DNA from: Mesorhizobium plurifarium
GTDB taxonomy: Bacteria > Pseudomonadota > Alphaproteobacteria > Rhizobiales > Rhizobiaceae
DNA: 64,000 nucleotides
Assembly: GCA_000824785.1 (NCBI GenBank)
Contig: CCNB01000006.1
Coordinates: forward strand, 1-64,000
Direction of reading: 5' to 3'
The notes beneath the pieces were generated by a model. It saw only the letters and a program-made list of their open reading frames with translations. It was not told the origin of the DNA and did not search any database. A program made the translations under genes and the position numbers. Positions 52,011 to 64,000 of this stretch are shown here, piece by piece. Numbering within the stretch: the first letter of the stretch is position 1; each line of letters starts with the position of its first letter.

Positions 52011-53792
52011 ATGGCTGAACGGAATTATACCCGTCAGCTTGCGACAATCATTTCGATCGACGCCGTAGGATTCTCGCGACTGATGGGCATCGACGACGAG
52101 CTCGCCGTCGCCGCCTTCGAGGAGAGGCGAGACATCATTGCCGACAGTTGCGGCGCCTTTGGCGGGCGCACGTTCGGCGATGCCGGCGACAGCATTATGG
52201 CCGAATTCGGCACCCCGATCGAAGCCCTGCGGGCGGCCTTCGATTTCCAGGGCCGGATCGTGGCGCTGAATGCGGCGGTCGCCGAGGACATGCGCATGCC
52301 GTTTCGCGCCGGGATCAACACCGGCGACGTCATCGTCCGGGAAGGCCGGCTCTACGGCGACGACGTGAACATCGCAGCCCGGCTCCAGGAATTCGCGCCG
52401 CATGATGGCGTCGCCATCTCGGCGACGACATGGCACCACGTGAAGGACAAGACGTCGGCCGTCTTCACCGATCTCGGCGAATTCAGCCTGAAGAACATCG
52501 CCCTGCCGGTGCAGGTCCTGATCGCCGGCCGCGGCGGCAACGGCCCCGCCGCGGCGGCTTCCTTCGCTTCCATCCCCGCCACGCCTGGCCATTACAGGCC
52601 GATCGCCAAGGGTCCGCCTGCAATCGCCGTGCTGCCGTTCCATGGCAACGGGGGCGAACCCGACGTCGGCTATATGGCCGACGGCATCGCCGAGGACATC
52701 ATATACGGGCTTTCCAACACGCGTTGGCTTTCGGTCATCGCCAAGGGCTCCAGCTTCCAGTTTCGCGACGACAGCCTGGGCACGAGGCTCATCGGCAATG
52801 CGCTCGGCGCGCGCTACATCGTCAGCGGCACGCTGGCGCGCTCCGACAGGCAGATCCGCCTCAATACGTCGCTCACCGACACCTCGAACGGACGCCTGGT
52901 CTGGTCGCAACGCTTCGACCGCGATCTCGTCGACATCTTCAGCCTGCGCGATCAGATCGGCAGTGAGATCGTTTCCATCCTCGACAAGGAGGTCGATCGC
53001 GCCGAGCAGGCGCGCACGTTCCAGGTGCCGTGGGAAAGCCTCGAAACCTGGCAACTGGTCAGGCGCGGCCGCTGGCACATGAACAGGCGCACCCGCCGCG
53101 ACACCGACATCGCCCTCGACTTCTTCGACAGAGCCTACCGGGACGATCCGAATTCGAGCGCCGTGCTGAACGAGCTCGCATGGTGGTATTTCTGGCGGGC
53201 ATGGCTGCGTTTCGGCGACAGCGACGATCTCGAGAAGGTCGAGGCGCTCGCGCGCAAGGCGCTGCTGATGGACAGCCTCGATGCGCGCCCGCATGCCTAT
53301 CTCGGGGCAGCCGACATCATGCGCGGCCTGCCGGCATTGGCGGCCGAGCACCTTGCAGAGGCGATCCACATCAATCCGAGCTTTGCCTTCGCCCGCTCGG
53401 CCATGGGCAGCGCGCACCTTTTGCTTGGCGATGCAACCGGCGCGATTCCCTTCTTCCTCGATACCGAGCGGTTGAGCCCGTTCGACCTCTATCGCTTCCA
53501 CAATCTGGGAGAACTGGCCGCGGCCTATTGCTTCGTCGAGGACTGGCCGGCCGCGATCGCCACCGCCGAGCGCTCGCTCAACCTGTCGCCAGGTTACTTC
53601 TACGCCAGGTTCCTGAAGATAGGCGCGCTGATGAGAAGCGGCCGGTGCGACGAGGCGGCGCGCGAGCTTGCGATTTTCATGACCAGGCACCCGGATTTTT
53701 CCGAGCAGAGAATACGCTGGATACCGTTCGTGGACCCGGCCAAGAACAATTTCCTGATCGGCAATTTCGATCTGGCCAAGTCCGCCGCATAA
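52011..53792 (+). CDS. Class III adenylate/guanylate cyclase with TolB-like and TPR regions
   Basis: The 593-residue protein has an N-terminal class III cyclase domain (~8-175) in which both metal-binding Asp residues (Asp17 and Asp60) and the transition-state pair Asn120/Arg124 (VNIAARL) are present, so it is probably active. A region starting IAVLPFHGNGG (~204-330) and a helical TPR-like array (~340-590) follow, an arrangement common in rhizobial cyclases and likely a sensor. It has no membrane span. The product is presumed to be cAMP. It directly precedes a Crp site and the P450-DyP gene. ATG 52011 was chosen over a TTG 17 codons upstream. Confidence 0.88.
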   Translation: MAERNYTRQLATIISIDAVGFSRLMGIDDELAVAAFEERRDIIADSCGAFGGRTFGDAGDSIMAEFGTPIEALRAAFDFQGRIVALNAAVAEDMRMPFRAGINTGDVIVREGRLYGDDVNIAARLQEFAPHDGVAISATTWHHVKDKTSAVFTDLGEFSLKNIALPVQVLIAGRGGNGPAAAASFASIPATPGHYRPIAKGPPAIAVLPFHGNGGEPDVGYMADGIAEDIIYGLSNTRWLSVIAKGSSFQFRDDSLGTRLIGNALGARYIVSGTLARSDRQIRLNTSLTDTSNGRLVWSQRFDRDLVDIFSLRDQIGSEIVSILDKEVDRAEQARTFQVPWESLETWQLVRRGRWHMNRRTRRDTDIALDFFDRAYRDDPNSSAVLNELAWWYFWRAWLRFGDSDDLEKVEALARKALLMDSLDARPHAYLGAADIMRGLPALAAEHLAEAIHINPSFAFARSAMGSAHLLLGDATGAIPFFLDTERLSPFDLYRFHNLGELAAAYCFVEDWPAAIATAERSLNLSPGYFYARFLKIGALMRSGRCDEAARELAIFMTRHPDFSEQRIRWIPFVDPAKNNFLIGNFDLAKSAA

Positions 53793-53816
53793 TCGCCGGG
53801 GCCGACAAGAAATGAC

Positions 53817-53832
53817 TGTGAGCGAATTCACA
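53817..53832. promoter_or_regulatory. Perfect Crp-type site upstream of the P450-DyP gene
   Basis: TGTGAGCGAATTCACA is a full TGTGA-N6-TCACA palindrome, 25 bases after the cyclase stop and 78 bases before the ATG at 53911. It fits a Crp-cAMP activation site. The Crp-like protein encoded at 58262-58945 keeps the Arg-Glu of the recognition helix. Confidence 0.7.
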
Positions 53833-53910
53833 TACGCCGGGCCGATGCAAACCTAGGCCAGAACAATGCCGGCATCGCATTGACGTGGACAGCCGGGGGG
53901 CTTGAACGCG

Positions 53911-56900
53911 ATGATCACTTTGAAATACTTCGCCGCCGTCCGCGCCGCTCAGAAGAGCCAGCGTCCGGTCGTCGAGATGCCGCCCTTCGACATCAACCGC
54001 CTGCGTTCCAAGGACGGCATTGCTTCCCGTATTGCCGGCTTTCTTCTGGGCGATCCGCGCTGGCTGCTGTCGCTGCTGCGCCGTTTCTGGCCCAATCTCG
54101 GCTTCGGCAATTTCCTGCTCGTCACCAAGGGCGCGGACGTGCGCGACATATTGGAGCGGGGCGATGAGTTCGAGACGCCCTACGGACCGGAAATGGCCGA
54201 GCTGGCGCGGGGCTCGAATTTCATTCTCGGCATGCAGGACGGCGCCGCGTACCGGCAGATGAAATCGGCGGTGCTGAGCGCGTTCCCGCCAGCGGAAGTC
54301 GAAGCCGCCGTCAGGCCGATCGCCGAGCGCCATTCGCGCGACATCATGACCCGCGCCAGCCCCGGCTTCGACGCCATCGCCGGGTTGATGAAGATCGTGC
54401 CGGTGCGCATCTGCCGCGATTATTTCGGCCTTGAGATCGACGATGAAACCGAATTCGCCGACTGGTCGATCGCGCTCAGCGCGCTGTTCTTCTCCGACCC
54501 GACGGCAAACCCCACCACGCGCCAGCTTGCGGTGGTCGGCGGCGATCGCCTGATCAAGGTCATAGATCGCTCGATCGCCGCGATCAGGGAAAGGGCGGGC
54601 AAGGACGACCGGCCGCTGGCCCGCCTCGTCGCGTTGATGGACCAGGGGCGCCTGTCGCTGCCCGACATCCATTCCATCATGCTCGGCATGGTCGCTGGCT
54701 TCGTGCCGACCAACGTGCTTGCCGGCAGCAATTGCCTGGACGTGATCCTGTCGCGGACCGATGCGCGGCAAGCCGTCGATCAGGCTGTCGCGGCCAGCGA
54801 TACCGGCAAGCTCGACCGGGCGGTCATGGAGGCCATGCGCTTCAAACCGATCTGGATCGGGCCATGGCGCTACACCAGGCGTGACGCGGTCATCGGCAAG
54901 GGCACGCGCCGCGAGCGCCTGGTCAAGGCCGGAACGGTGGTGATGCCGGCGACGCTGTCAGCCATGTTCGATCCGGAGATCGTCCAGCGGCCGAACGAGT
55001 TCGATACGTCGCGCCCGCATCGCGACTACATGGTGTTCGGCTACGGCATCCATCTGTGCATCGGCGCCGAGATCGCCCGCATCCAGATCGGCGAATGCAT
55101 CCGCGCCCTGTTCAGCAAACCGAAGCTGACCCGCGCGCGGGGCAGGGCCGGCAAGATGGTCAATGTCGGTGCCTATCCGGCAAGCCTCAAGGTCGATTTC
55201 GAGCGCTCGCCGCTTTGCCGCACCGCCGATCAGTCGATGGTGACGGTGGTCTGCCCGTTCACCCGACCGATCCCGCTCGATGCGGTGCGCGACAAGGTTG
55301 CGGATCTCGGCAATCCGGCGATCGGCGAGCTTAGCGCCGCGCTCGACAAGGTCGGCACCGTTCATTTCACCAGCCTGGCCGTTGTTCCGACCGGCAAGGA
55401 CGAGAAATCGGGGACCGAGACCGGCGCGCTGATGCTCGAAATCTCGGGCGATGGCAGCACCGACGAGGTCATCGCCGCCGTCGCGCAATCGATCGGCCAC
55501 CGGTTGCGGCCGATCTTCAGGGATGTCTGCGGCCTTCCGGACGGCGGGCCGCTGGAGGACTTCCTGAAGAGGAACCATATCGACATATCGCCCTCCTTCG
55601 GCAGCACCGCCGGGCTGGTTTTCTCAGGCACGCCAGGGCATTCCGTGCGGCGGATCCTGGCCGAGGCCAGGCTCGCCGACAGCGTGCGCGAGATCGTCGA
55701 GAAGCCGCGCGCGGGCAACGGCAATGCGATGGATGTACTTGCCGAGGCGCGCCGGCATGTCCGCTGCCTGGGGCAATTCGGCTGGGCGTTCGAGCCCGCC
55801 GAAAGCCTGCTGGAAAGGCCGCCGGGCCACTGGGCGCGCGCGTTGACGACGACATTGCTCACCCCGGCGATGTTCGCCACGGTGGCGATCGTCGTTCTTG
55901 CCTTTTGGCGCATGACCTATGTGCTGGTGTTCGGCAATCCGCATGGCGTCACCTTCGCCAACATCGCGATCGCCGGCGCCGCGCTTCTGCTTTCGGTGCT
56001 CGGTCTGATCGCCATCCTGCTCCTGTTCGTGGTCCTCTGTTTCCTGGCGCTGCGGCGGCTCGAGGACAAGGACCGGCCGGCGAACACCCCGGTCGATATA
56101 GGCGCGCTCGAAAAGATCCTTGCCAGGGAGGATCACACCGCGCAGAACAACCTGACGGCGATCTCGACGATGAAGCCGGGGATCTTGCGGCGGCTGGCGC
56201 TGCGGCTCTCCTTCTACCTGATCTCGATATCGGCGCAGAAAGTATTCCGTCCGGGCTTCCTCGCCACCATCAACACCATTCATTTCGCCCGCTGGGTTCT
56301 GTTGCCCGGCACCGACAGGCTGGTATTCTTCTCCAACTTCGGCGGCAGCTGGGAAAGCTATCTTGAGGATTTCATCGCGAAGGCCTCGGCCGGTCTGACC
56401 GGCGTGTGGAGCAACACCGAGGGCTATCCGCGCACGCGCTGGCTGTTCCTCGACGGCGCGCGCGACGGCGACCGCTTCAAGCGCTGGGCACGGCGCCAGC
56501 AGGTGCCGACGCTGTTCTGGTACAGCGCCTATCCGCATCTCAACACCGCGCGCATCCGCATCAACTCCAGGATTAGGCGCGGCATCGCTTCGGCCACCGG
56601 TAACGAAGCGCGCGACTGGCTGAGCCTGTTCGGCTCCCTGCCGCGTCCGCAAGCGCGCCCGGCGGATGCGACCAGCCTGGCCGAACCGGCGACCGCGCCG
56701 CTCGAAGAGTTGGAATCCGGGGAGATCCAGTCGATCTTCTTCGGGCCGTTCGGCGCGCTCGGTCATGCGCATATGCTTGCGATCGAGGTGCCGGACGGTT
56801 TGCCGGCAACCAAGCGCAAGGCGTGGCTCGATTTCGTCGTCGACAAGACCAGCTTCGGCGACGGCGTGCCCGCCGGCCGCGCCATGACGGTGGCGTTTGG

Positions 56901-58137
56901 CCCGAACGGCCTATGCCGGCTCGGGCTTCACGGCGGCGTCGACGACGAGCCGTTGGACACGTTCCCCGTCGCCTTCCGCCAAGGCATGGGAACGCCTGAG
57001 CGCAGCCGCATCCTCAACGATACCGGTCCCGACGCTCCCGACAAATGGCAATGGGGCTCGCCTAAGAATCCTGTCGACCTCGTCATCGTCTGCTACGCCG
57101 AAACGCCAGCCACGTTGAAAGCCGAGATCGCGGCCATGAAGCGACAGACGACGGGCGCCGGCATGTCCGTGACCGCCGAACTGCCGCTGCTGGTGAAGCG
57201 CGACGGCAAGCGGGCGGTCGAGCATTTCGGTTTCGTCGACGGCGTCTCGCAGCCGATCGTTCGGGGCACGGCGCGCGCCGCCAAGGGAGCCGCGCCCATG
57301 CATCTGGTCGCGCCCGGCGAGTTCCTGTTCGGCTACCGCGACGAGCATGGCTTCTATCCGGCTTCGCCATCCGTCGAGGCGGCGCTGGATCGCACCGGTA
57401 TCCTGTCGCAGGTGCGGCGCAACCGCCAGATTCCGGGGCAGCCACCGCCGCCGCGCGATTTCGGCCGCAACGGCACCTTCCTCGTCGTGCGCCAGTTCCA
57501 GCAGCATGTCGAATTGTTCGACGATTATTGCCGGCAGGCCGCCGTTCAGGCCGCCGGCGAGACCGGTGATGCGGCCATCACGCCGCGCTGGGTGGCGGCA
57601 AAGATGCTCGGCCGCTGGCAGGACGGCAGCTCGCTGGTGCGCAATCCGAACGGGCGTCCGGGCCGTGGCATCGACAATGATTTCGCGCTCGGCGCCGAAG
57701 ACCCGCAAGGGCACGCCTGTCCGCTCGGCTCTCACATACGCCGTTCCAACCCCCGCGATTCGCTCGGCGAGGACCGCGACACGCAGATCAGGATCGGCAA
57801 GCGCCACCGCATCCTGCGCGTCGGCCGCACCTATGAGAAGAAGGGCAGGGGCGGAAAGACAGAGAAGGGCCTGCTCTTCATGTGCCTCAACGCCGATATC
57901 GAACGCCAATACGAGTTCATCCAGCAGACATGGGTGTCCTCGAACTCGTTCCAGGGCCTTGTGGGCGAAACGGATCCGACGATTGGCGCGCGAGGCGGCG
58001 GCGGCCGGTTCTCGATCCCTTCCTGGGAGAAGGTCACTGTGCTCAAGGATGTGCCGCAGTTCGTCACCACCAAGGGCGGCGGCTATTTCTTCATGCCCAG
58101 CCGCTCGGCGCTGCGCTATCTGATCTCGCGGCTTTGA
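53911..58137 (+). CDS. Cytochrome P450 - duplicated module/membrane hairpin - DyP-type peroxidase fusion
   Basis: The 1408-residue protein joins two haem enzymes. Residues ~1-430 are a cytochrome P450 with the E307xxR310 motif and haem-ligand Cys383 in FGYGIHLCIGAEIARIQ; its I-helix (GMVAGFVPTN) lacks the usual Ala-Gly-x-Asp/Glu-Thr. A ~110-residue module then occurs twice (~481-594 and ~788-893) around two membrane helices (~645-716). Residues ~905-1408 are a DyP-type peroxidase with GFVDG at 1107-1111, proximal His1275 in GSHIRRSNPRD, and GLLFMCLNADIERQYEF. There is no signal peptide. The ATG at 53911, 10 bases after a G-run, was preferred over TTG 53902. Its role is unknown; a coupled peroxide or lipid oxidation is possible. 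Confidence 0.88.
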   Translation: MITLKYFAAVRAAQKSQRPVVEMPPFDINRLRSKDGIASRIAGFLLGDPRWLLSLLRRFWPNLGFGNFLLVTKGADVRDILERGDEFETPYGPEMAELARGSNFILGMQDGAAYRQMKSAVLSAFPPAEVEAAVRPIAERHSRDIMTRASPGFDAIAGLMKIVPVRICRDYFGLEIDDETEFADWSIALSALFFSDPTANPTTRQLAVVGGDRLIKVIDRSIAAIRERAGKDDRPLARLVALMDQGRLSLPDIHSIMLGMVAGFVPTNVLAGSNCLDVILSRTDARQAVDQAVAASDTGKLDRAVMEAMRFKPIWIGPWRYTRRDAVIGKGTRRERLVKAGTVVMPATLSAMFDPEIVQRPNEFDTSRPHRDYMVFGYGIHLCIGAEIARIQIGECIRALFSKPKLTRARGRAGKMVNVGAYPASLKVDFERSPLCRTADQSMVTVVCPFTRPIPLDAVRDKVADLGNPAIGELSAALDKVGTVHFTSLAVVPTGKDEKSGTETGALMLEISGDGSTDEVIAAVAQSIGHRLRPIFRDVCGLPDGGPLEDFLKRNHIDISPSFGSTAGLVFSGTPGHSVRRILAEARLADSVREIVEKPRAGNGNAMDVLAEARRHVRCLGQFGWAFEPAESLLERPPGHWARALTTTLLTPAMFATVAIVVLAFWRMTYVLVFGNPHGVTFANIAIAGAALLLSVLGLIAILLLFVVLCFLALRRLEDKDRPANTPVDIGALEKILAREDHTAQNNLTAISTMKPGILRRLALRLSFYLISISAQKVFRPGFLATINTIHFARWVLLPGTDRLVFFSNFGGSWESYLEDFIAKASAGLTGVWSNTEGYPRTRWLFLDGARDGDRFKRWARRQQVPTLFWYSAYPHLNTARIRINSRIRRGIASATGNEARDWLSLFGSLPRPQARPADATSLAEPATAPLEELESGEIQSIFFGPFGALGHAHMLAIEVPDGLPATKRKAWLDFVVDKTSFGDGVPAGRAMTVAFGPNGLCRLGLHGGVDDEPLDTFPVAFRQGMGTPERSRILNDTGPDAPDKWQWGSPKNPVDLVIVCYAETPATLKAEIAAMKRQTTGAGMSVTAELPLLVKRDGKRAVEHFGFVDGVSQPIVRGTARAAKGAAPMHLVAPGEFLFGYRDEHGFYPASPSVEAALDRTGILSQVRRNRQIPGQPPPPRDFGRNGTFLVVRQFQQHVELFDDYCRQAAVQAAGETGDAAITPRWVAAKMLGRWQDGSSLVRNPNGRPGRGIDNDFALGAEDPQGHACPLGSHIRRSNPRDSLGEDRDTQIRIGKRHRILRVGRTYEKKGRGGKTEKGLLFMCLNADIERQYEFIQQTWVSSNSFQGLVGETDPTIGARGGGGRFSIPSWEKVTVLKDVPQFVTTKGGGYFFMPSRSALRYLISRL

Positions 58138-58261
58138 CCGGGCGCTGAAGCTGTTCGATGCTTCTTGGATGTGGCGAACCGATCGAGCTGGGGCGAAGCA
58201 ACTGGGCCAGCTGCGGCGAAACCGCCAAGCCAGTCACGGCGAAACCGCCGCGCTCGATCGC

Positions 58262-58945
58262 TCAGTCGTCGTCCTGCGATTCGGCGATCTGGTTCAGCGC
58301 GGCGAGGTTGGTGATGCGCAACCCGCCGCGTTTGATGGCGATCATCTGCCGGTTGCGCCAGTCGTTCAGCGTCTTGTTGACGGATTCGCGCGTCGCGCCG
58401 AGGAACTCGCCGAGCTCCGACTGCGAAATCGGAATCCAGCCGGCGCTGTCGGCCATGACGCCGCTCAGGAACACCAGCCGTTTTGCCAGCCTGGCTTCGA
58501 TGCCGAAAAAGGCCTGGTCGCCCAGCTCGCCGCTGACCCAGCGCAGTCTTGCGCACAGCAACTCGATCATCGCGCGTGCAAGAGGCGGGTTTTTCTCAAT
58601 ACGGTCAAAGAGTTGTGTCCGGCTCAGCGAAACCAGCTCGCAGGCGGTGAGGCAGATGGCGGTCGCCGTGCGCGGGCGCCCGTCGAGCGCTCCGATCTCC
58701 CCGACGAGGCTGCGCGACAGCTCGATATTGGCCACCAGCTTCTGCCCGCCCGGCGAATAGATCGAAATCTCGACGGTGCCGCTCATCACGCCGTAGATGC
58801 GGTCGGACGCATCCTCCTGGACGAACAAATGCTGGCCGGCGGCATAGCGCTCCAGCTTGCAGCCCGCGAACAGCAGGTCGAACTGGCGCGGGTCGATGCG
58901 CGCCAGGCGCGGCAGGTTCCTGTCGTCCGCGCCGTTTGTAGCCAT
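58262..58945 (-). CDS. Crp/Fnr-family regulator with cAMP-binding-type pocket
   Basis: The 227-residue regulator has a cyclic-nucleotide-binding domain with SLVGEIGALDGRPRTATA, which matches the phosphate-binding cassette GE...R(S/T)A of true Crp proteins; in the C-helix the Thr/Ser pair reads Val-Ser. There are no Fnr-type Cys residues. The helix-turn-helix ISQSELGEFLGATRESVNKTLNDW keeps the Arg-Glu of the Crp recognition helix, with Lys where E. coli has the second Arg. It converges with the P450-DyP gene and diverges from the double-protease gene, and both have perfect Crp palindromes upstream. Confidence 0.9.
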   Translation of the reverse strand: MATNGADDRNLPRLARIDPRQFDLLFAGCKLERYAAGQHLFVQEDASDRIYGVMSGTVEISIYSPGGQKLVANIELSRSLVGEIGALDGRPRTATAICLTACELVSLSRTQLFDRIEKNPPLARAMIELLCARLRWVSGELGDQAFFGIEARLAKRLVFLSGVMADSAGWIPISQSELGEFLGATRESVNKTLNDWRNRQMIAIKRGGLRITNLAALNQIAESQDDD

Positions 58946-59273
58946 GATACGATTCCGCCTCTCGTTAAGCGGAAATTGTAGGATAAGTGCGTGCTCGATC
59001 AAAGCGTCGTCTCCTTCTATGGTGGCTGACCGAATTCGGCAGGCGACGGACAGAAGGTCCGATGTCACGCCCGACACGCCGAAATCGGACAAGCCGGCAA
59101 ACTGTAAGGAGACCGGGCGCACTGGCGGTTGCGGGCCGATCCTTCGAAACGCCGTCCGCGCGCTTGGGTGGGAGGTGCCCAGCGCGCAGACAGCAAATCT
59201 GAAAATGGCTAAGTGATCGAAATTTCTTCTCGAGAACCCGGTGCAATATCTGGGCGCAATCCTGTTCGACGTA

Positions 59274-59289
59274 TGTGAAGGCGCTCACA
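59274..59289. promoter_or_regulatory. Perfect Crp-type site upstream of the double-protease gene
   Basis: TGTGAAGGCGCTCACA is a full TGTGA-N6-TCACA palindrome in the 532-base divergent gap, 188 bases before the protease ATG and 328 bases before the crp ATG. It may serve one or both promoters. The remaining part of the gap shows no gene. Confidence 0.7.
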
Positions 59290-59477
59290 GATATGCATGT
59301 CCGCCGGAGCGACTGTCGCGCCTGAAATATGTGGGTTCATGTTTCGGTCGGCTTTGCTTTGGAAGACAGGCCGCATGATTGCCTAGTCGGCAAAGAGCTC
59401 AATCGAAGCATGGCGGGAACCTTGGCTTGACCGGAGCGGACGGTCGGCGCCATGGTTGGCTTGGGGAGGGGCATGCC

Positions 59478-62400
59478 ATGGCCGCCGTGAAGGGACTCCT
59501 TGTCAAGGTTCATGGCGACGGCGCGGGGCTCGCGGCGCAAGGCGGGCCGCCCCGGATTGGCGGGATCAAAGCCGAACCGATCCTTGCTCTCCCGCCCAGT
59601 GTCGGTGGCGCAGGTCCGGCTGCGGCCGGGGATCGCGGCGCCACCTGGTTGCGGCTGGCAACGGATGCCGTCGATACGGACAATCCCTGGGACCACGTCC
59701 ACGATCTTGTCGCCCGAACTCCGGCGCTTGCCGCCGCGGGCGCAGAGGTGCTCGCGGTCGAGCCCGATATCGCGCAGCAATGGGATTACAGGAGCGGCGC
59801 CGGCGACCGCGGCATGGCGGCAAGCGCCAGTCCCGTCTGCGCTTTCGACGATCAGGATCCGCAGGGCGGACAGGCGGTGGTCGCGGGGCGCATCGCCTGG
59901 AACGCCGCGCCTGACTTCAGCCAGTTCGCGGCGGCGCGCAACAGGGTGGGCGCCAAGCAGGCCAACATCACGATCGCCCATCTCGATACCGGTTTCGACC
60001 CGAACCACGAGACCCTGCCGGCCGGGCTTCTTACAGCCCAGCAACGCAACTTCGTCGACGACGGAACCGGTCCGAACAACGCGACCGACCACGCTCCAGC
60101 CGGCACGCTCACCAGCAATCGCGGCCATGGCACCGGCACGCTCAGCCTGCTTGCCGGCAACAAGCTCGACGGCACTTCGCCGCATTGGCCGGGCTTCACC
60201 GATTTCGTCGGCGGCGCGCCATTGGCGAAAATCCTGCCGGTTCGCATCGCCGACTGGGTGGTGCGGCTGACCACGGGCACCATGGTGCAAGGCATCGACT
60301 ATGCGCGCCAGCAGGGCGCGCAGGTGCTGTCGATGAGCATGGGCGGCCTCACCTCGCAGGCCCTGGTCGACGCCGTCAACCTTGCCTACGACCACGGCCT
60401 GGTGATGGTCACCGCGGCGGGTAACAATTTCACCTTCACGCCAAGCAGCATCGTCTATCCTGCGCGCTACAACCGGGTGCTTGCGGCCTGCGGCGTGATG
60501 GGCGACGGACGCGCCTATGCCGGCCTTGCTCTCGGCACCATGCAAGGCAATTACGGGCCGCCTTCCAAGATGAACACGGCGCTCGGCGCCTACACGCCGA
60601 ACGTGCCCTGGGCGGAAATCGACTGCCGCAAGGTGGTCGACATGGACGGCAACGGCACCTCGGCCGCCACCCCGCAAGTCGCCGCCGCGGCCGCTCTGTG
60701 GCTCGCCGAGCATTGGGACGTGGTGAAGAACTATCCTCAGCCTTGGATGCGGATCGAGGCTGTACGCAAGGCGTTGTTCGCGAAGGCTTTGAAATCGACG
60801 GCCAAGATGAATGCGGCGGAGACGAAGCAGAAGATCGGGCAGGGCGTGTTGCGGGCTCTCGATGCGCTGGACTTCCCGCCGCCAGCGGCGGAGAGCCTCA
60901 CGAAGCTCACTCCCGCCACCTATACATGGAGCTGGCTTGAGCTCTTGACCGGCGGCAACTCGTTGGCGGCGCCGACCCCCGTGACATCGCGGCAGCGCAT
61001 GATGTTTGCGCTGGAACTGACGCAGATGGCGCAAAGAACAGTGGCAATCGAGCAGACGATCGCCGACCCGGACGGCGATCCGGATCAGGTTTCGGCGGCG
61101 GCACGCAACCGCTTCCTCGAAGCGGCGCTCGACCAGGGCAATCCGTCAAAGCCGCTCAAGGCGTTCCTGGAAGGTCTGCTCGGCCGTCCAGGCGCGAGCG
61201 TAGCCGTTCCTGCACCCGTTACAGGCCCTGAGCCGGCCATCAAGCGCAAGCCGCGGCCGCTGCCGCCGCCGCAACGGCGCCTGCGCATCTACGCCCTCGA
61301 TCCTTCGGTGGCCAAGCGGCTGGATTCCGTTTCGGTCTACCAGGCGACGCTTTCGGTGCCGTGGGACGACGAGCCGGCGACGGACAAGCCGCTGCTGCCC
61401 GGTCCGATCGGCGAATATCTCGAAGTGGTCGATGTCGACCCCGCGTCCGATCGCATTTACGATCCGGTCGATCTCAACGACAAGGTTCTTCTGGCGCAGG
61501 ACGGACTGCCGCCTTCGGAAGGCAATCCGAAATTCCACCAGCAGATGGTCTACGCCGTCGCCATGACCACGATCGGCCATTTCGAGCGCGCGCTTGGCCG
61601 GCGGGCATTGTGGGCGCCGCATTATGCCGAGGCTCCCGGCCGCACCGGCGACATGACGGTGAAGGCCCATTACGTGCCGCGCCTGCGCATCTATCCGCAT
61701 GCGTTGCGCGCCGAGAATGCCTATTACAGCCCGGAAAAGAAGGCGCTGCTGTTCGGCTATTTCCCGGCGACCAGCAATGAGGGCGACGTCACCACGCCCG
61801 GAACGACGGTGTTCTCGTGCCTGTCCAGCGATATCGTCGCGCATGAGATGTCGCATGCGCTGCTCGACGGGCTGCATCGCCGATTCCAGGAAGCGTCCAA
61901 TCCGGACGTGCCGGCCTTCCACGAGGCCTTCGCCGATATCGTCGCGCTGTTCCAGCATTTCACCCTGAAGGAGCTGGTCAGCTTCGAAATCGGCAAGGCG
62001 AGGGGCGAACTGTCGGCCGCCTCGCTGCTTTCGGGCATCGCCAAGCAGTTCGGCGAAGGCAGCGGCAGGGCCGGACCGTTGCGCGAATATGGCGGCGCCG
62101 GCATGGCCGATCTCGACTACGACAAGACCTTCGAGGCGCATGACCGCGGCTCGATCCTGGTTTTCGCCGTCTACCAGGCCTTCCTGGCCATCGCCGACCG
62201 GCGGACCGACGACCTGATCCAGCTTGCCACCGGCGGCTCCGGCATCCTGCCGGCGGGAACCTTGCATCCGAGCTTGGTCGAGCGCCTGACCGACGAGGTC
62301 GCCAAGACCGCCAGGCAGATGCTGACCATGTGCATCCGCGCGCTCGACTATTGCCCTTCCGTCGACATCAGCTTCGGTGAATATCTGCGCGCGCTGATCA

Positions 62401-63155
62401 CCGCCGACCGCGATGCCTATCCGGACGATCCGCTGCACTATCGCCTCGCCTTCCTGGAATCGTTCCGCAAATGGAAGCTGTTGCCGCGCGACGTCCGCAC
62501 CATCTCGGAAGAGACGCTGGCCTGGAGCGCGCCGGAGGACCCGTCGCCTTCCTGGCTGAAGGGCCTGCTGAGCAAGATCGATCTCGGCTGGAACCAGAAA
62601 TTGAAGCGGGCCGAAATCTTCGCGCTCAACGACAAGAACCGCTATGCGCTGTGGAAGGCGATGCACAAGGCCTTCGTCTCCGATCCGGACCTCTACAAGC
62701 AGTTCGGCCTGCTGCCCGATCTGCCGCGCTACAATGAGGACGGCACGGTCATGCATGCGCCGAAGAAAGGCGAGACGACCTTCGACATCTACAGCGTGCG
62801 CCCGACGCGCCGCGTCGAGCCGGACGGCTCGTTCCGCATCGAGGTGGTGGCCGTGATCCAGCAGCGCATTCCGGTTGCGCCGGACGGCACGGCGATGCCG
62901 CAAGGCACGGCCAAGGGCGACAGCTTCTTCTGGTTCCGCGGCGGCGCCACGATCATCATCGACCCGCGCGAAGGGTTCGAAGAGATCCGCTACTCGATCA
63001 TCAAGAACACCGGCAGCGCGGACCGGCAGAAGCGTCAGGCCGGCACGATGGCGGCCAATTACCTATCGCCGCTGCGGGCGCTCTATTTCGGCGGCGAGGT
63101 GTCGGAGCCCTTTGCCTTGCTGCATGCCAGCGACGGAGACGACGATCATGTCTAG
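59478..63155 (+). CDS. Fusion of subtilisin-family (S8) and M4-like gluzincin peptidase domains
   Basis: The 1225-residue protein carries two complete proteolytic sites. The S8 domain (~155-460) has Asp170 (HLDTGFD), His217 (RGHGTGT), oxyanion Asn316 (AAGNN) and Ser395 (GNGTSAATP). A spacer with a Pro/Lys-rich linker (~580-600) leads to a thermolysin-like zinc site, H789-E-M-S-H793, with Glu816 in the EAFAD motif as third ligand. A ~250-residue C-terminal region of unknown fold follows. There is no signal peptide, so it may act inside the cell. GGAGG precedes the ATG at 59478; an upstream ATG at 59379 is less likely. The MBL gene overlaps its end by 8 bases. Confidence 0.87.
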   Translation: MAAVKGLLVKVHGDGAGLAAQGGPPRIGGIKAEPILALPPSVGGAGPAAAGDRGATWLRLATDAVDTDNPWDHVHDLVARTPALAAAGAEVLAVEPDIAQQWDYRSGAGDRGMAASASPVCAFDDQDPQGGQAVVAGRIAWNAAPDFSQFAAARNRVGAKQANITIAHLDTGFDPNHETLPAGLLTAQQRNFVDDGTGPNNATDHAPAGTLTSNRGHGTGTLSLLAGNKLDGTSPHWPGFTDFVGGAPLAKILPVRIADWVVRLTTGTMVQGIDYARQQGAQVLSMSMGGLTSQALVDAVNLAYDHGLVMVTAAGNNFTFTPSSIVYPARYNRVLAACGVMGDGRAYAGLALGTMQGNYGPPSKMNTALGAYTPNVPWAEIDCRKVVDMDGNGTSAATPQVAAAAALWLAEHWDVVKNYPQPWMRIEAVRKALFAKALKSTAKMNAAETKQKIGQGVLRALDALDFPPPAAESLTKLTPATYTWSWLELLTGGNSLAAPTPVTSRQRMMFALELTQMAQRTVAIEQTIADPDGDPDQVSAAARNRFLEAALDQGNPSKPLKAFLEGLLGRPGASVAVPAPVTGPEPAIKRKPRPLPPPQRRLRIYALDPSVAKRLDSVSVYQATLSVPWDDEPATDKPLLPGPIGEYLEVVDVDPASDRIYDPVDLNDKVLLAQDGLPPSEGNPKFHQQMVYAVAMTTIGHFERALGRRALWAPHYAEAPGRTGDMTVKAHYVPRLRIYPHALRAENAYYSPEKKALLFGYFPATSNEGDVTTPGTTVFSCLSSDIVAHEMSHALLDGLHRRFQEASNPDVPAFHEAFADIVALFQHFTLKELVSFEIGKARGELSAASLLSGIAKQFGEGSGRAGPLREYGGAGMADLDYDKTFEAHDRGSILVFAVYQAFLAIADRRTDDLIQLATGGSGILPAGTLHPSLVERLTDEVAKTARQMLTMCIRALDYCPSVDISFGEYLRALITADRDAYPDDPLHYRLAFLESFRKWKLLPRDVRTISEETLAWSAPEDPSPSWLKGLLSKIDLGWNQKLKRAEIFALNDKNRYALWKAMHKAFVSDPDLYKQFGLLPDLPRYNEDGTVMHAPKKGETTFDIYSVRPTRRVEPDGSFRIEVVAVIQQRIPVAPDGTAMPQGTAKGDSFFWFRGGATIIIDPREGFEEIRYSIIKNTGSADRQKRQAGTMAANYLSPLRALYFGGEVSEPFALLHASDGDDDHV

Positions 63156-64000
63156 GAAGCCGGCGACGAGGACAAGGCCGGCAAAAACGGCCGCAGCGGT
63201 GGCGCCGGCGGCGGGCGTCACCGTGCGGCATTATTGCCAGGGCATCGGCGATTGCCATCTGCTTACCTTCAGACATGCGGATGGAAAGCCTTTCCGCATG
63301 CTCATCGACTGCGGCATCCATGTTTCGATCGCGGGTGGCCCGGCGCTGGTCGCCGACATCGTCGCCGACCTCAGACAAGAGACCGGCGGCAAGATCGACA
63401 TCCTCGTCGTCACGCACGAACACTGGGACCATGTCTCCGGCTTCCTGACCGCGAAGGACCTTTTCAAGGACTTTGTTGTCGGCGACGTCTGGATGGCCTG
63501 GACGGAGAATCCGGCGGATGCCGAGGCCGCGGAGCTCGACAAGTTCAAGGGCCAGGCGATCGCCGCGCTGCAGGGCGTGGGTCAGAAGCTCGACGCGATG
63601 CGTGGGCTGAGCTCCTACATGGCCGGTATCCGCGATGGTCTGCAATCCGTGCTCGGCTTCCAGTTCGGCGCGGCCGGCGAGCGGGTGCGCTCGGCCCGCG
63701 ACGCGGCTGCCAGGCTCTCGCAAAAATCGTCACCGACCTATTTCGAGCCCGGCGGACCGCCGGTGACGATCGACGCATTGCTGAACCTTCGCGTCTATGT
63801 GCTCGGTCCGCCGCGCGACAAGGCAGCGCTGCGGCTGGAAGAGAAGGCGAGCGAGATGTTCCCGCTGGCCAGCGGCGGCCCGTTCGCGCGGGCGCTGGCA
63901 AGCGGCCTCAAGATGAACGAGGCGGCCGACACTGGTTACGTCGACGAGCTCAGCCCGTTCGAACGCAATGTCGGCACGCCGCTTTCCGCGGCGCTGAAAG
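63148..64000 (+). CDS. MBL-fold metallo-hydrolase, 3'-truncated by the window edge
   Basis: The open frame from ATG 63148 runs to the window end (284 codons). After a basic, Ala-rich start, VRHYCQGIGDCHLLTF and FRMLIDCG lead to the metal-binding motif H90-E-H92-W-D94-H95 (VVTHEHWDHVSGF), typical of the metallo-beta-lactamase fold of the ComEC/RNase Z-like group. A long insertion follows, rich in Ala and Asp. The 8-base overlap with the protease gene implies coupled translation and a joint function. The substrate is unknown: nuclease, phosphoesterase or other hydrolase are all possible. Confidence 0.85.
   Translation, partial: MSRKPATRTRPAKTAAAVAPAAGVTVRHYCQGIGDCHLLTFRHADGKPFRMLIDCGIHVSIAGGPALVADIVADLRQETGGKIDILVVTHEHWDHVSGFLTAKDLFKDFVVGDVWMAWTENPADAEAAELDKFKGQAIAALQGVGQKLDAMRGLSSYMAGIRDGLQSVLGFQFGAAGERVRSARDAAARLSQKSSPTYFEPGGPPVTIDALLNLRVYVLGPPRDKAALRLEEKASEMFPLASGGPFARALASGLKMNEAADTGYVDELSPFERNVGTPLSAALK

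What the first reader, a model, noticed from the sequence alone, without database searches (positions are those of the whole stretch)
52011..64000. Candidate cAMP-controlled oxidase-protease system
An active-looking class III cyclase, a Crp-type regulator with a cAMP-type pocket, a P450-DyP fusion, an S8+M4 double protease and a coupled MBL-fold hydrolase lie together. Perfect Crp palindromes precede both effector operons and the regulator sits between them. The large enzymes lack signal peptides, so the system seems to work inside the cell or at the inner membrane. The signal-to-regulator-to-effector layout resembles a self-contained response module (stress, defence or specialised oxidation), and I did not recognise it as a described system. 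Its purpose is inference; further partners may lie past the window edge.
Basis: partly seen in the sequence, partly recalled or inferred. Interest (0 to 1): 0.88.

Follow-up and report, generated by a model that had tools for sequence, protein, structure and literature searches.

The report
Crp-controlled oxidase with swappable protease cassette
In Mesorhizobium and related soil bacteria, a cyclase and a Crp-type switch sit in a conserved unit with a giant two-heme enzyme, and beside the switch lies an exchangeable set of protein- and DNA-cutting enzymes of the kind bacteria are thought to use against invaders, so this looks like an undescribed signal-controlled conflict system.

Summary
In detail: five intact genes and two perfect TGTGA-N6-TCACA sites, of seven in the 7.1-Mb genome. 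The locus has two layers. Layer 1, cyclase/P450-DyP/convergent crp, is conserved: of 13 other Rhizobiaceae genomes (13 genera) found with the fusion, 12 have crp beside it, 10 also the cyclase. A Crp site precedes P450-DyP in 48 of 48 crp-bearing loci scored and 0 of 18 without. In four relatives a SARP-like DNA-binding domain replaces the cyclase domain; crp and site are absent there. Layer 2, S8-metalloprotease plus MBL, is a cassette: in 33 of 146 genus genomes it lies about 3 kb past P450-DyP. Seven carry trypsin-NucA genes in that slot instead or as well; two carry both in one row behind one Crp site. Trypsin-NucA is a predicted conflict system (Kaur 2020, 'System 3'). P450-less relatives of the oxidase on rhizobial plasmids sit near trypsin-NucA in 6 of 8 records and near S8 peptidases in the other two. 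The metalloprotease-MBL pair recurs across phyla, often near defence genes and lipases. Best reading: a cyclic-nucleotide/Crp-controlled oxidative and proteolytic conflict module. Regulation is supported by comparison only; messenger, trigger and function are inferred.

The parts
52011..53792 (+). cyclase: class III nucleotide cyclase domain (about 1-165) + TolB-like and TPR part (about 204-575)
   Evidence: Pfam PF00211 and TPRs; metal Asp, Asn and Arg residues kept in 19 of 19 orthologues aligned (roles of the residues recalled)
53817..53832 (.). Crp palindrome 1, TGTGAGCGAATTCACA, upstream of P450-DyP
   Evidence: 9-10/10 in 48 of 48 crp-bearing loci scored, 0 of 18 without a crp orthologue
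53902..58137 (+). P450-middle-DyP fusion with internal TM-like stretches; ATG at 53911
   Evidence: P450 about 54118-55119, TM-like 55840-56067, DyP about 57034-58110
58262..58945 (-). Crp-type regulator (longest ORF to 59122; relatives point to a start at 58945)
   Evidence: Pfam cNMP_binding and HTH_Crp_2; GE...R[TS] pocket and TRES[VI]N recognition helix in 20 of 20 (roles recalled)
59274..59289 (.). Crp palindrome 2, TGTGAAGGCGCTCACA, between crp and the protease cassette
   Evidence: 10/10 in 21 of 21 Mesorhizobium loci with the S8 cassette
59478..63155 (+). S8 subtilase (about 59964-60788) fused to M36/M4-like gluzincin (about 61275-62516); longest ORF from 59379
   Evidence: HExxH and third-ligand Glu invariant in 22 of 22; VIA-align Z 24 to M36 fungalysins
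63148..64000 (+). MBL-fold hydrolase; gene runs on to 64671 outside the window (L043)
   Evidence: Lactamase_B; next to the metalloprotease in 35 of 35 outside loci examined (L030)

Best explanation
A cyclic-nucleotide/Crp-controlled conflict module made of a fixed control-and-oxidase unit and an exchangeable effector cassette. The cyclase, through its TolB-like/TPR part, responds to an unknown signal and makes a cyclic nucleotide (inferred). Crp binds it and then the palindromes (inferred from residues and site conservation), switching on the membrane-anchored P450-DyP, which probably uses peroxide or lipid hydroperoxide at both hemes, and, through site 2, the cassette: here a cytosolic S8+M36-like double protease with an MBL hydrolase, in sister genomes a trypsin-NucA protease-nuclease system or both in one row. 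The likely outcome is an intracellular oxidative/proteolytic attack on an invader or on the cell's own machinery. Shown here: gene content, conservation, site-crp linkage, domain swap, cassette exchange. Inferred: messenger identity, activation rather than repression, control of the cassette by site 2, substrates, the conflict role.
For: Trio conserved in other genera at about 49-81% identity. Site upstream of P450-DyP: 13 of 13 loci of other genera and 35 of 35 Mesorhizobium loci scored 9-10/10; 4 of 4 fused and 14 of 14 split or DyP-only loci without a crp orthologue scored at most 7; dinucleotide shuffles of the crp-bearing regions reached 9 in 37 of 9600. Four relatives carry a SARP/EmbR/AfsR-like N-terminus on the same TolB/TPR part, with no crp match in the stretch fetched and no site. 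Cassette: S8-metalloprotease copies at 80% identity or more in 33 of 146 genus genomes, 33 of 33 with P450-DyP; trypsin-NucA at 88% or more in 7 of 146, 7 of 7 in the crp slot, 2 of them with S8-metalloprotease, MBL, TrypNucA, EAD1-trypsin, u461 and NucA collinear behind one perfect site. P450-less DyP relatives on plasmids: 6 of 8 records have trypsin-NucA (two of these broken) within 6 kb; the other two have S8-metalloprotease+MBL or an S8 peptidase within 7 kb. M36-MBL pairs near CBASS, Hachiman-type, McrC, SIR2/TIR genes on plasmids.
Against: No experiment. The cyclase has no Lys where classical adenylyl cyclases have one (canonical residue recalled), so the nucleotide may not be cAMP. Site 2 is perfect in 11 of 11 cassette-less loci L136-L146 and in L173 and L177, which fits crp autoregulation. 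Other slot contents are not conflict-like: a GCV_T gene (L108), xanthine-dehydrogenase-type genes (L174), an RTX-repeat gene (L162; homologues in L163, L165, L166). In 11 of 12 other Rhizobiaceae genera there is no perfect second site, and I did not annotate most of their slot genes. PADLOC gives only weak domain-level hits. Sites of 9/10 or better also occur elsewhere in the crp-bearing stretches (44 in 795 kb and 11 in 256 kb, site 2 included).
Confidence: 0.56

Rival explanations
1. A Crp-regulated oxidative metabolism or stress unit (for example lipid-hydroperoxide or aromatic oxidation by P450+DyP); the protease/nuclease genes are unrelated passengers of an insertion-prone slot.
For: Split P450 and DyP genes occur with a catalase-family gene, ferredoxin and FAD oxidoreductase in Methylorubrum; the slot also receives metabolic genes; most other genera have the trio without a cassette that I recognised.
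Against: Homologous trypsin-NucA proteins sit beside DyP relatives both in the chromosomal slot and on plasmids; S8-metalloprotease and trypsin-NucA lie collinear behind one Crp site; the P450 I-helix acid is lost in 23 of 23 fused forms, unlike ordinary monooxygenases (role recalled).
Confidence: 0.26
2. Site 2 regulates only the divergent crp (autoregulation); the S8-metalloprotease-MBL genes are not under Crp.
For: Site 2 perfect in 11 of 11 cassette-less genus-mates L136-L146 and in L173, L177; it lies about 330 bp from the likely crp start.
Against: The best site there is 6-7/10 in 10 of 13 loci of other genera and at most 9/10 in the cassette-less L147-L153, so autoregulation is not general; it is perfect in 21 of 21 S8-cassette loci and in front of all seven slots with trypsin-NucA.
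Confidence: 0.3
3. A plant-interaction or symbiosis factor: the enzymes act on the host or in the nodule.
For: The hosts of the trio are largely rhizobia; in L162 the slot holds an RTX-repeat gene, usually a secreted protein.
Against: No TM-like stretch at the N-terminus of the window's large enzymes in a hydropathy scan (not a signal-peptide predictor); the M36-MBL pair also occurs in Bacteroidota, Deinococcus, Verrucomicrobia and Acidobacteria; 74 of 146 genus genomes have P450-DyP.
Confidence: 0.1

Closest known systems
NucA-trypsin conflict system ('System 3', Kaur et al. 2020, PMC7159879; section 32 read whole, other passages by term search)
   Same: Proteolytic cascade theme, mostly alphaproteobacterial, S8 sometimes present, EAD1-trypsin; a system of this make-up fills the same crp slot in genus-mates
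   Different: The window's own cassette has no NucA or trypsin; the terms P450, peroxidase and lactamase do not occur in the paper's main text; Crp control is not in the section read
Pycsar (class III cyclase + cyclic-nucleotide-gated effector; recalled)
   Same: Class III-type cyclase and a cNMP-binding receptor in one locus; the Crp protein weakly hits PADLOC PycTIR
   Different: The receptor is a DNA-binding Crp, not a direct effector; control is transcriptional
cAMP-Crp regulons (E. coli CRP, recalled; S. meliloti Clr, PMC5498481, start of abstract seen; CRP control of cas3 in E. coli, PMC7019758, start of abstract seen)
   Same: Same palindrome as E. coli CRP; Crp control of an immune gene is already reported for E. 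coli cas3
   Different: A local regulator next to its own cyclase, with only seven perfect sites in the genome
Dye-decolorizing peroxidases and bacterial cytochrome P450s (best solved P450 match CYP113A1)
   Same: DyP catalytic Asp and heme His, P450 Cys motif
   Different: Fused through a middle part with TM-like stretches and no Pfam match; P450 I-helix lacks the acid
MBL proteins of defence systems (Lamassu LmuA, Avs1a, 6A-MBL)
   Same: The MBL N-terminal part matches weakly
   Different: Far below curated cut-offs; the partner is an M36-like protease

Membership tests
NucA-trypsin conflict system (Kaur System 3) | NucA-type (Endonuclease_NS) endonuclease in the cassette | tested here: not met
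   No such domain in the window's five proteins; Pfam-confirmed in the same slot of L154, L168, L179, by tblastn in L180, L188, L189, L190
NucA-trypsin conflict system (Kaur System 3) | Trypsin-like peptidase | tested here: not met
   The window carries S8 and M36-like peptidases instead; no trypsin-NucA match in G000 at E 1e-60
Crp-family regulator binding a cyclic nucleotide | cNMP-binding domain with GE...R[TS] pocket and Crp HTH | tested here: met
   (20 of 20)
Crp-family regulator binding a cyclic nucleotide | Binds cAMP | not testable with these tools
   At the C-helix position of E. coli CRP Thr127 (recalled) the family has V, I or L
Class III adenylyl cyclase | Metal Asp pair and transition-state Asn/Arg | tested here: met
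   19 of 19 orthologues; roles recalled
Class III adenylyl cyclase | Substrate-selecting Lys | tested here: not met
   No Lys in the stretch around GDS in 19 of 19; canonical motif recalled
Pycsar | Cyclic-nucleotide-gated effector (TIR, TM) with cNMP domain | tested here: not met
   The cNMP protein is a Crp with HTH
DyP peroxidase | GxxDG Asp and proximal His | tested here: met
   TIGR01413 at 101.5 against cut-off 100.5; Asp and His in 32 of 32 aligned
Cytochrome P450 monooxygenase | Cys ligand motif | tested here: met
Cytochrome P450 monooxygenase | I-helix acid-alcohol pair | tested here: not met
   GFxPT-type motif; acid absent in 27 of 29 aligned, 23 of 23 fused forms
M4/M36 gluzincin | HExxH plus downstream Glu and thermolysin-like fold | tested here: met
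   22 of 22; Z 24.1, rmsd 4.1, 322 aligned to 7z6t, and Z 19.0 to thermolysin; plain Foldseek gave no match at E 0.001; Pfam Peptidase_M4 only E 0.2
6A-MBL anti-phage system | MBL protein above NCBIfam cut-off | tested here: not met
   23.6 bits against cut-off 220

The most novel reading that the evidence does not exclude
A cyclic-nucleotide immune circuit in which a dedicated cyclase signals through a dedicated Crp to transcribe a membrane-bound two-heme oxidase together with an interchangeable protease/nuclease execution cassette, a transcriptional counterpart of Pycsar/CBASS signalling with modular effectors.
Probability: 0.3. Interest if true: 0.85.

Novelty: new variant of a known kind. 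Interest (0 to 1): 0.64.

Why it matters
It joins three things that are usually studied apart: cyclic-nucleotide signalling through Crp, fused heme oxidases, and peptidase-driven conflict systems. The tight site-crp linkage and the natural swap of cyclase+crp for a DNA-binding domain make the signalling chain directly testable in a non-pathogenic soil bacterium. It also gives the predicted NucA-trypsin systems a candidate regulator and a recurrent oxidase partner, and it flags the M36-MBL(-lipase) gene set as a candidate defence system.

Tried and rejected
Fold of the P450-DyP middle and DyP parts: the model was unusable (mean pLDDT 39.8, 17 close sequences) and I drew nothing from it. Foldseek on the metalloprotease model gave no match at E 0.001; the VIA-align second look did. 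Profile search of the metalloprotease against solved-structure sequences gave only hits at E 0.4 and above. Pfam found nothing in the P450-DyP middle or in the L117 and L155 slot proteins scanned. Phage origin: no relative of the metalloprotease confirmed in viral contigs and two weak records in phages. Rfam and tRNA scans of the window were empty. The other five perfect palindromes in the genome lie beside genes that look unrelated by my reading of the translations, among them an alanine-dehydrogenase-like, an epimerase-like and an ABC-transporter gene; I saw no regulon pattern. Idea that the S8 cassette and trypsin-NucA exclude each other: rejected, two genomes have both. Idea that site 2 is explained by the cassette alone: not supported. 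Literature: searched the held open-access full texts (most subscription papers are missing); no listed title or abstract start describes this combination. Of PMC7159879 I read section 32 and passages found by term; of PMC8195603 passages found by term; of all others I saw only listings. No supplementary tables were read.

Limits of the counts: one search scored 66 loci, not all that I held. L188 was not scored there; its stretch shows no perfect site before P450-DyP. L189 starts inside P450-DyP. Mesorhizobium loci are closely related, and some named loci look like the same genomes as G handles (for instance L042/L136, L018/L171, L026/L172), so counts over them are not independent. The Pararhizobium plasmid L117 may belong to a genus already sampled. 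Among the 'no crp' loci, L120 has a Crp-family gene of 25% identity about 7 kb away. Genome G032, source of L161 (SARP type), also holds a separate crp-type copy of the fusion (L102). L115 was not interpretable with my gene caller. The gene caller was trained on this window's genes and is rough. Searches sampled 121 and 385 genomes out of larger groups.
Full report
What is there. The window lies in a 7.14-Mb Mesorhizobium-like genome (genus judged from the relatives). Between a left flank with an L,D-transpeptidase (YkuD) and a right flank that reads as gph, rpiA and gor (my reading of the translations) lie cyclase, P450-DyP, convergent crp, S8-metalloprotease and MBL. The MBL gene ends at 64671, outside the window. 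The catalytic signatures I checked are intact except two: the P450 I-helix lacks the usual acid (GFVPT-like; 23 of 23 fused forms, 27 of 29 P450s aligned), and the cyclase has no Lys where adenylyl cyclases choose ATP (canonical residue recalled). The DyP Asp and His are kept in 32 of 32, the metalloprotease HExxH and Glu in 22 of 22.

The control layer. Two perfect TGTGA-N6-TCACA palindromes lie in the locus and only seven in the genome, against one for the reversed control pattern. Site 1 starts 85 bp before the TTG of the longest P450-DyP frame. I scored the best site in the 350 bp before P450-DyP (or before the first of the split genes) in 66 loci. With crp: Mesorhizobium 35 of 35 (31 at 10/10, 4 at 9/10), other genera 13 of 13 (5 at 10/10, 8 at 9/10; 12 genomes of different genera plus a Pararhizobium plasmid). 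Without a crp orthologue: fused forms 0 of 4, split or DyP-only forms 0 of 14, best 7/10. Shuffles reach 9 in 37 of 9600 for the crp-bearing regions and 25 of 3600 for the others. The six middle bases vary, so it is the palindrome that is kept. In the family sample 13 other genomes, each of another genus, hold the full or near-full fusion; 12 have crp beside it and 10 of these the cyclase too; L102 and L104 lack the cyclase but keep crp and a 9/10 site.

A natural swap. In four loci with the full fusion (L109 and L161 from Rhizobiaceae genomes, Novosphingobium pNL2 L118, Sulfitobacter L119) the gene in the cyclase position has the same TolB/TPR part but a different N-terminus. That N-terminus aligns among the four, matches EmbR and, weakly, AfsR by profile (E 1.5e-4 and 0.014-0.04), and is annotated SARP in pNL2; Pfam gave no DNA-binding family at E 0.01 for the three scanned. 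No crp match lies in the stretches fetched, and no site. The genome of L161 also has a crp-type copy elsewhere (L102). A one-protein DNA-binding regulator thus stands where cyclase, messenger and Crp stand in the others. This is comparative evidence that cyclase and Crp form one chain acting on P450-DyP.

The oxidase. Fusions of P450, a middle part with TM-like stretches and DyP occur in 14 of 121 family genomes, the window's included (full or near-full hits, plus one fragment in G043). In several other alphaproteobacteria P450, middle part and DyP are separate neighbouring genes, so the fusion joins proteins that already lie side by side. The loss of the P450 acid, together with a peroxide-using DyP, suggests peroxide-driven chemistry at the membrane; this is inference.

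The cassette. In the genus, 74 of 146 genomes have P450-DyP (E 1e-100). S8-metalloprotease copies with 80% identity or more occur in 33 of 146, all 33 with P450-DyP; in 32 the metalloprotease lies about 3 kb from P450-DyP on the same contig, and in G551 the contig ends inside the gene. More distant metalloproteases occur elsewhere in further genomes (46 of 146 with any match at E 1e-40). I looked at 20 genus-mates without the close copy (L136-L155). In 11 of them (L136-L146) the crp end of the trio still faces gph; four of these 11 keep remnants of the cassette (L136, L141, L145, L146), and in most of the others the sequence runs from just past site 2 into the region after the MBL stop, which can be loss or an empty state. 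Seven genomes carry a trypsin-NucA gene at 88% or more, all seven in the slot beside crp; two more distant copies lie elsewhere. In G506 and G507 S8-metalloprotease, MBL, trypsin-NucA, EAD1-trypsin, an unknown and a second NucA gene lie in one row behind one perfect Crp site. Trypsin-NucA with EAD1-trypsin is the 'System 3' of Kaur et al. 2020 (PMC7159879, section 32), predicted there to be a conflict system run by a proteolytic cascade.

A second setting. Plasmids hold close relatives of the middle-DyP part without P450 (eight records besides Pararhizobium). Six of these eight have trypsin-NucA within 6 kb (18 of 72,556 plasmid records hold one at E 1e-60). In two of the six it is split by a transposase (CP018236) or truncated (CP104150), and two (CP016290, CP018229) look like the same locus. 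The other two have S8-metalloprotease+MBL about 7 kb away (R. ruizarguesonis) and an S8 peptidase with a phospholipase-D-like gene (Rhizobium TH2). No crp match appeared in the seven of these eight stretches that I fetched. So oxidase and peptidase systems meet in two different settings, with and without crp.

The metalloprotease-MBL pair on its own. Outside the Mesorhizobium slot I examined 35 loci; in 34 the MBL match starts within 1 kb of the metalloprotease match, and in L030 the other copy has it. Hosts span several phyla. Among 16 annotated plasmid loci (H1, H2, H3, H5, H7, H10, H16, H18, H19, H67, H73, H80, H82, H85, H87, H92; H4 had no annotation) nine have a patatin or DUF2235 lipase-type gene in the stretch, and neighbours include a CBASS cyclase, DUF1837 genes with helicases (Hachiman type, recalled), McrC, SIR2 and TIR genes; others, such as H2 and H19, show nothing of the kind. 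There was no matched control for these neighbours. PADLOC matches of the MBL proteins are weak (LmuA 1e-9 to 2e-15).

Against the reading. Site 2 is perfect in 21 of 21 S8-cassette loci, but also in 11 of 11 of L136-L146 and in L173 and L177, so it may regulate crp. It is 9/10 in L147, L148, L153, 7-8/10 in L149-L152, and no site of 9/10 or better lies near crp in L175 and L176. In loci of other genera it is 6-7/10 in 10 of 13, 9/10 in one, 10/10 in two. The slot also holds an unknown operon (L117, L155), an RTX-repeat gene and its neighbours (L162, L163, L165, L166) and metabolic genes (L108, L174). So the slot is an insertion-prone place, and some of the association may come from that alone. 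The trigger, messenger and phenotype are unknown.

Verdict. The effector pair is an exchangeable cassette, not a fixed part. The most likely role is a cyclic-nucleotide/Crp-controlled conflict response; a metabolic oxidation unit with passenger genes is the main rival.

Noticed in passing
L132:5794-10449, L182:4794-9431, L184:6049-10774, L187:4625-9629: Patatin-like phospholipase, M36-like metalloprotease and MBL hydrolase form a recurrent gene set on rhizobial plasmids, in L132 and L182 next to defence-type genes: a candidate three-gene defence system (patatin and metalloprotease of L132 and L182 have no PADLOC-DB 2.0.0 match).
   Followed up: partly
L117:15376-24227 and L155:8352-19901: An operon of four or more large proteins, without Pfam match where scanned, lies beside crp behind a Crp-like site (10/10 and 9/10) in Pararhizobium and a distant genus-mate.
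   Followed up: partly
window 59274-59289 and 64673-64690 against L137-L140, L142, L143: In these cassette-less genomes the sequence runs from just after Crp site 2 nearly straight into the region after the MBL stop codon, a nearly exact loss (or empty) junction.
   Followed up: yes
L019:16257-17912: Mesorhizobium sp. NFR06 has a second, 32%-identical cyclase-TPR gene between the MBL gene and gph.
   Followed up: no
L122:12263-14385, L156:9796-11638, L158:9231-11380, L159:9152-11400: The plasmid DyP relatives are followed by an endonuclease/exonuclease/phosphatase-type gene and a polysaccharide-lyase gene, a conserved small operon.
   Followed up: partly
L046:1-1530: A peroxidase-family gene lies about 8 kb from S8-metalloprotease+MBL on a Phyllobacterium plasmid.
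   Followed up: no
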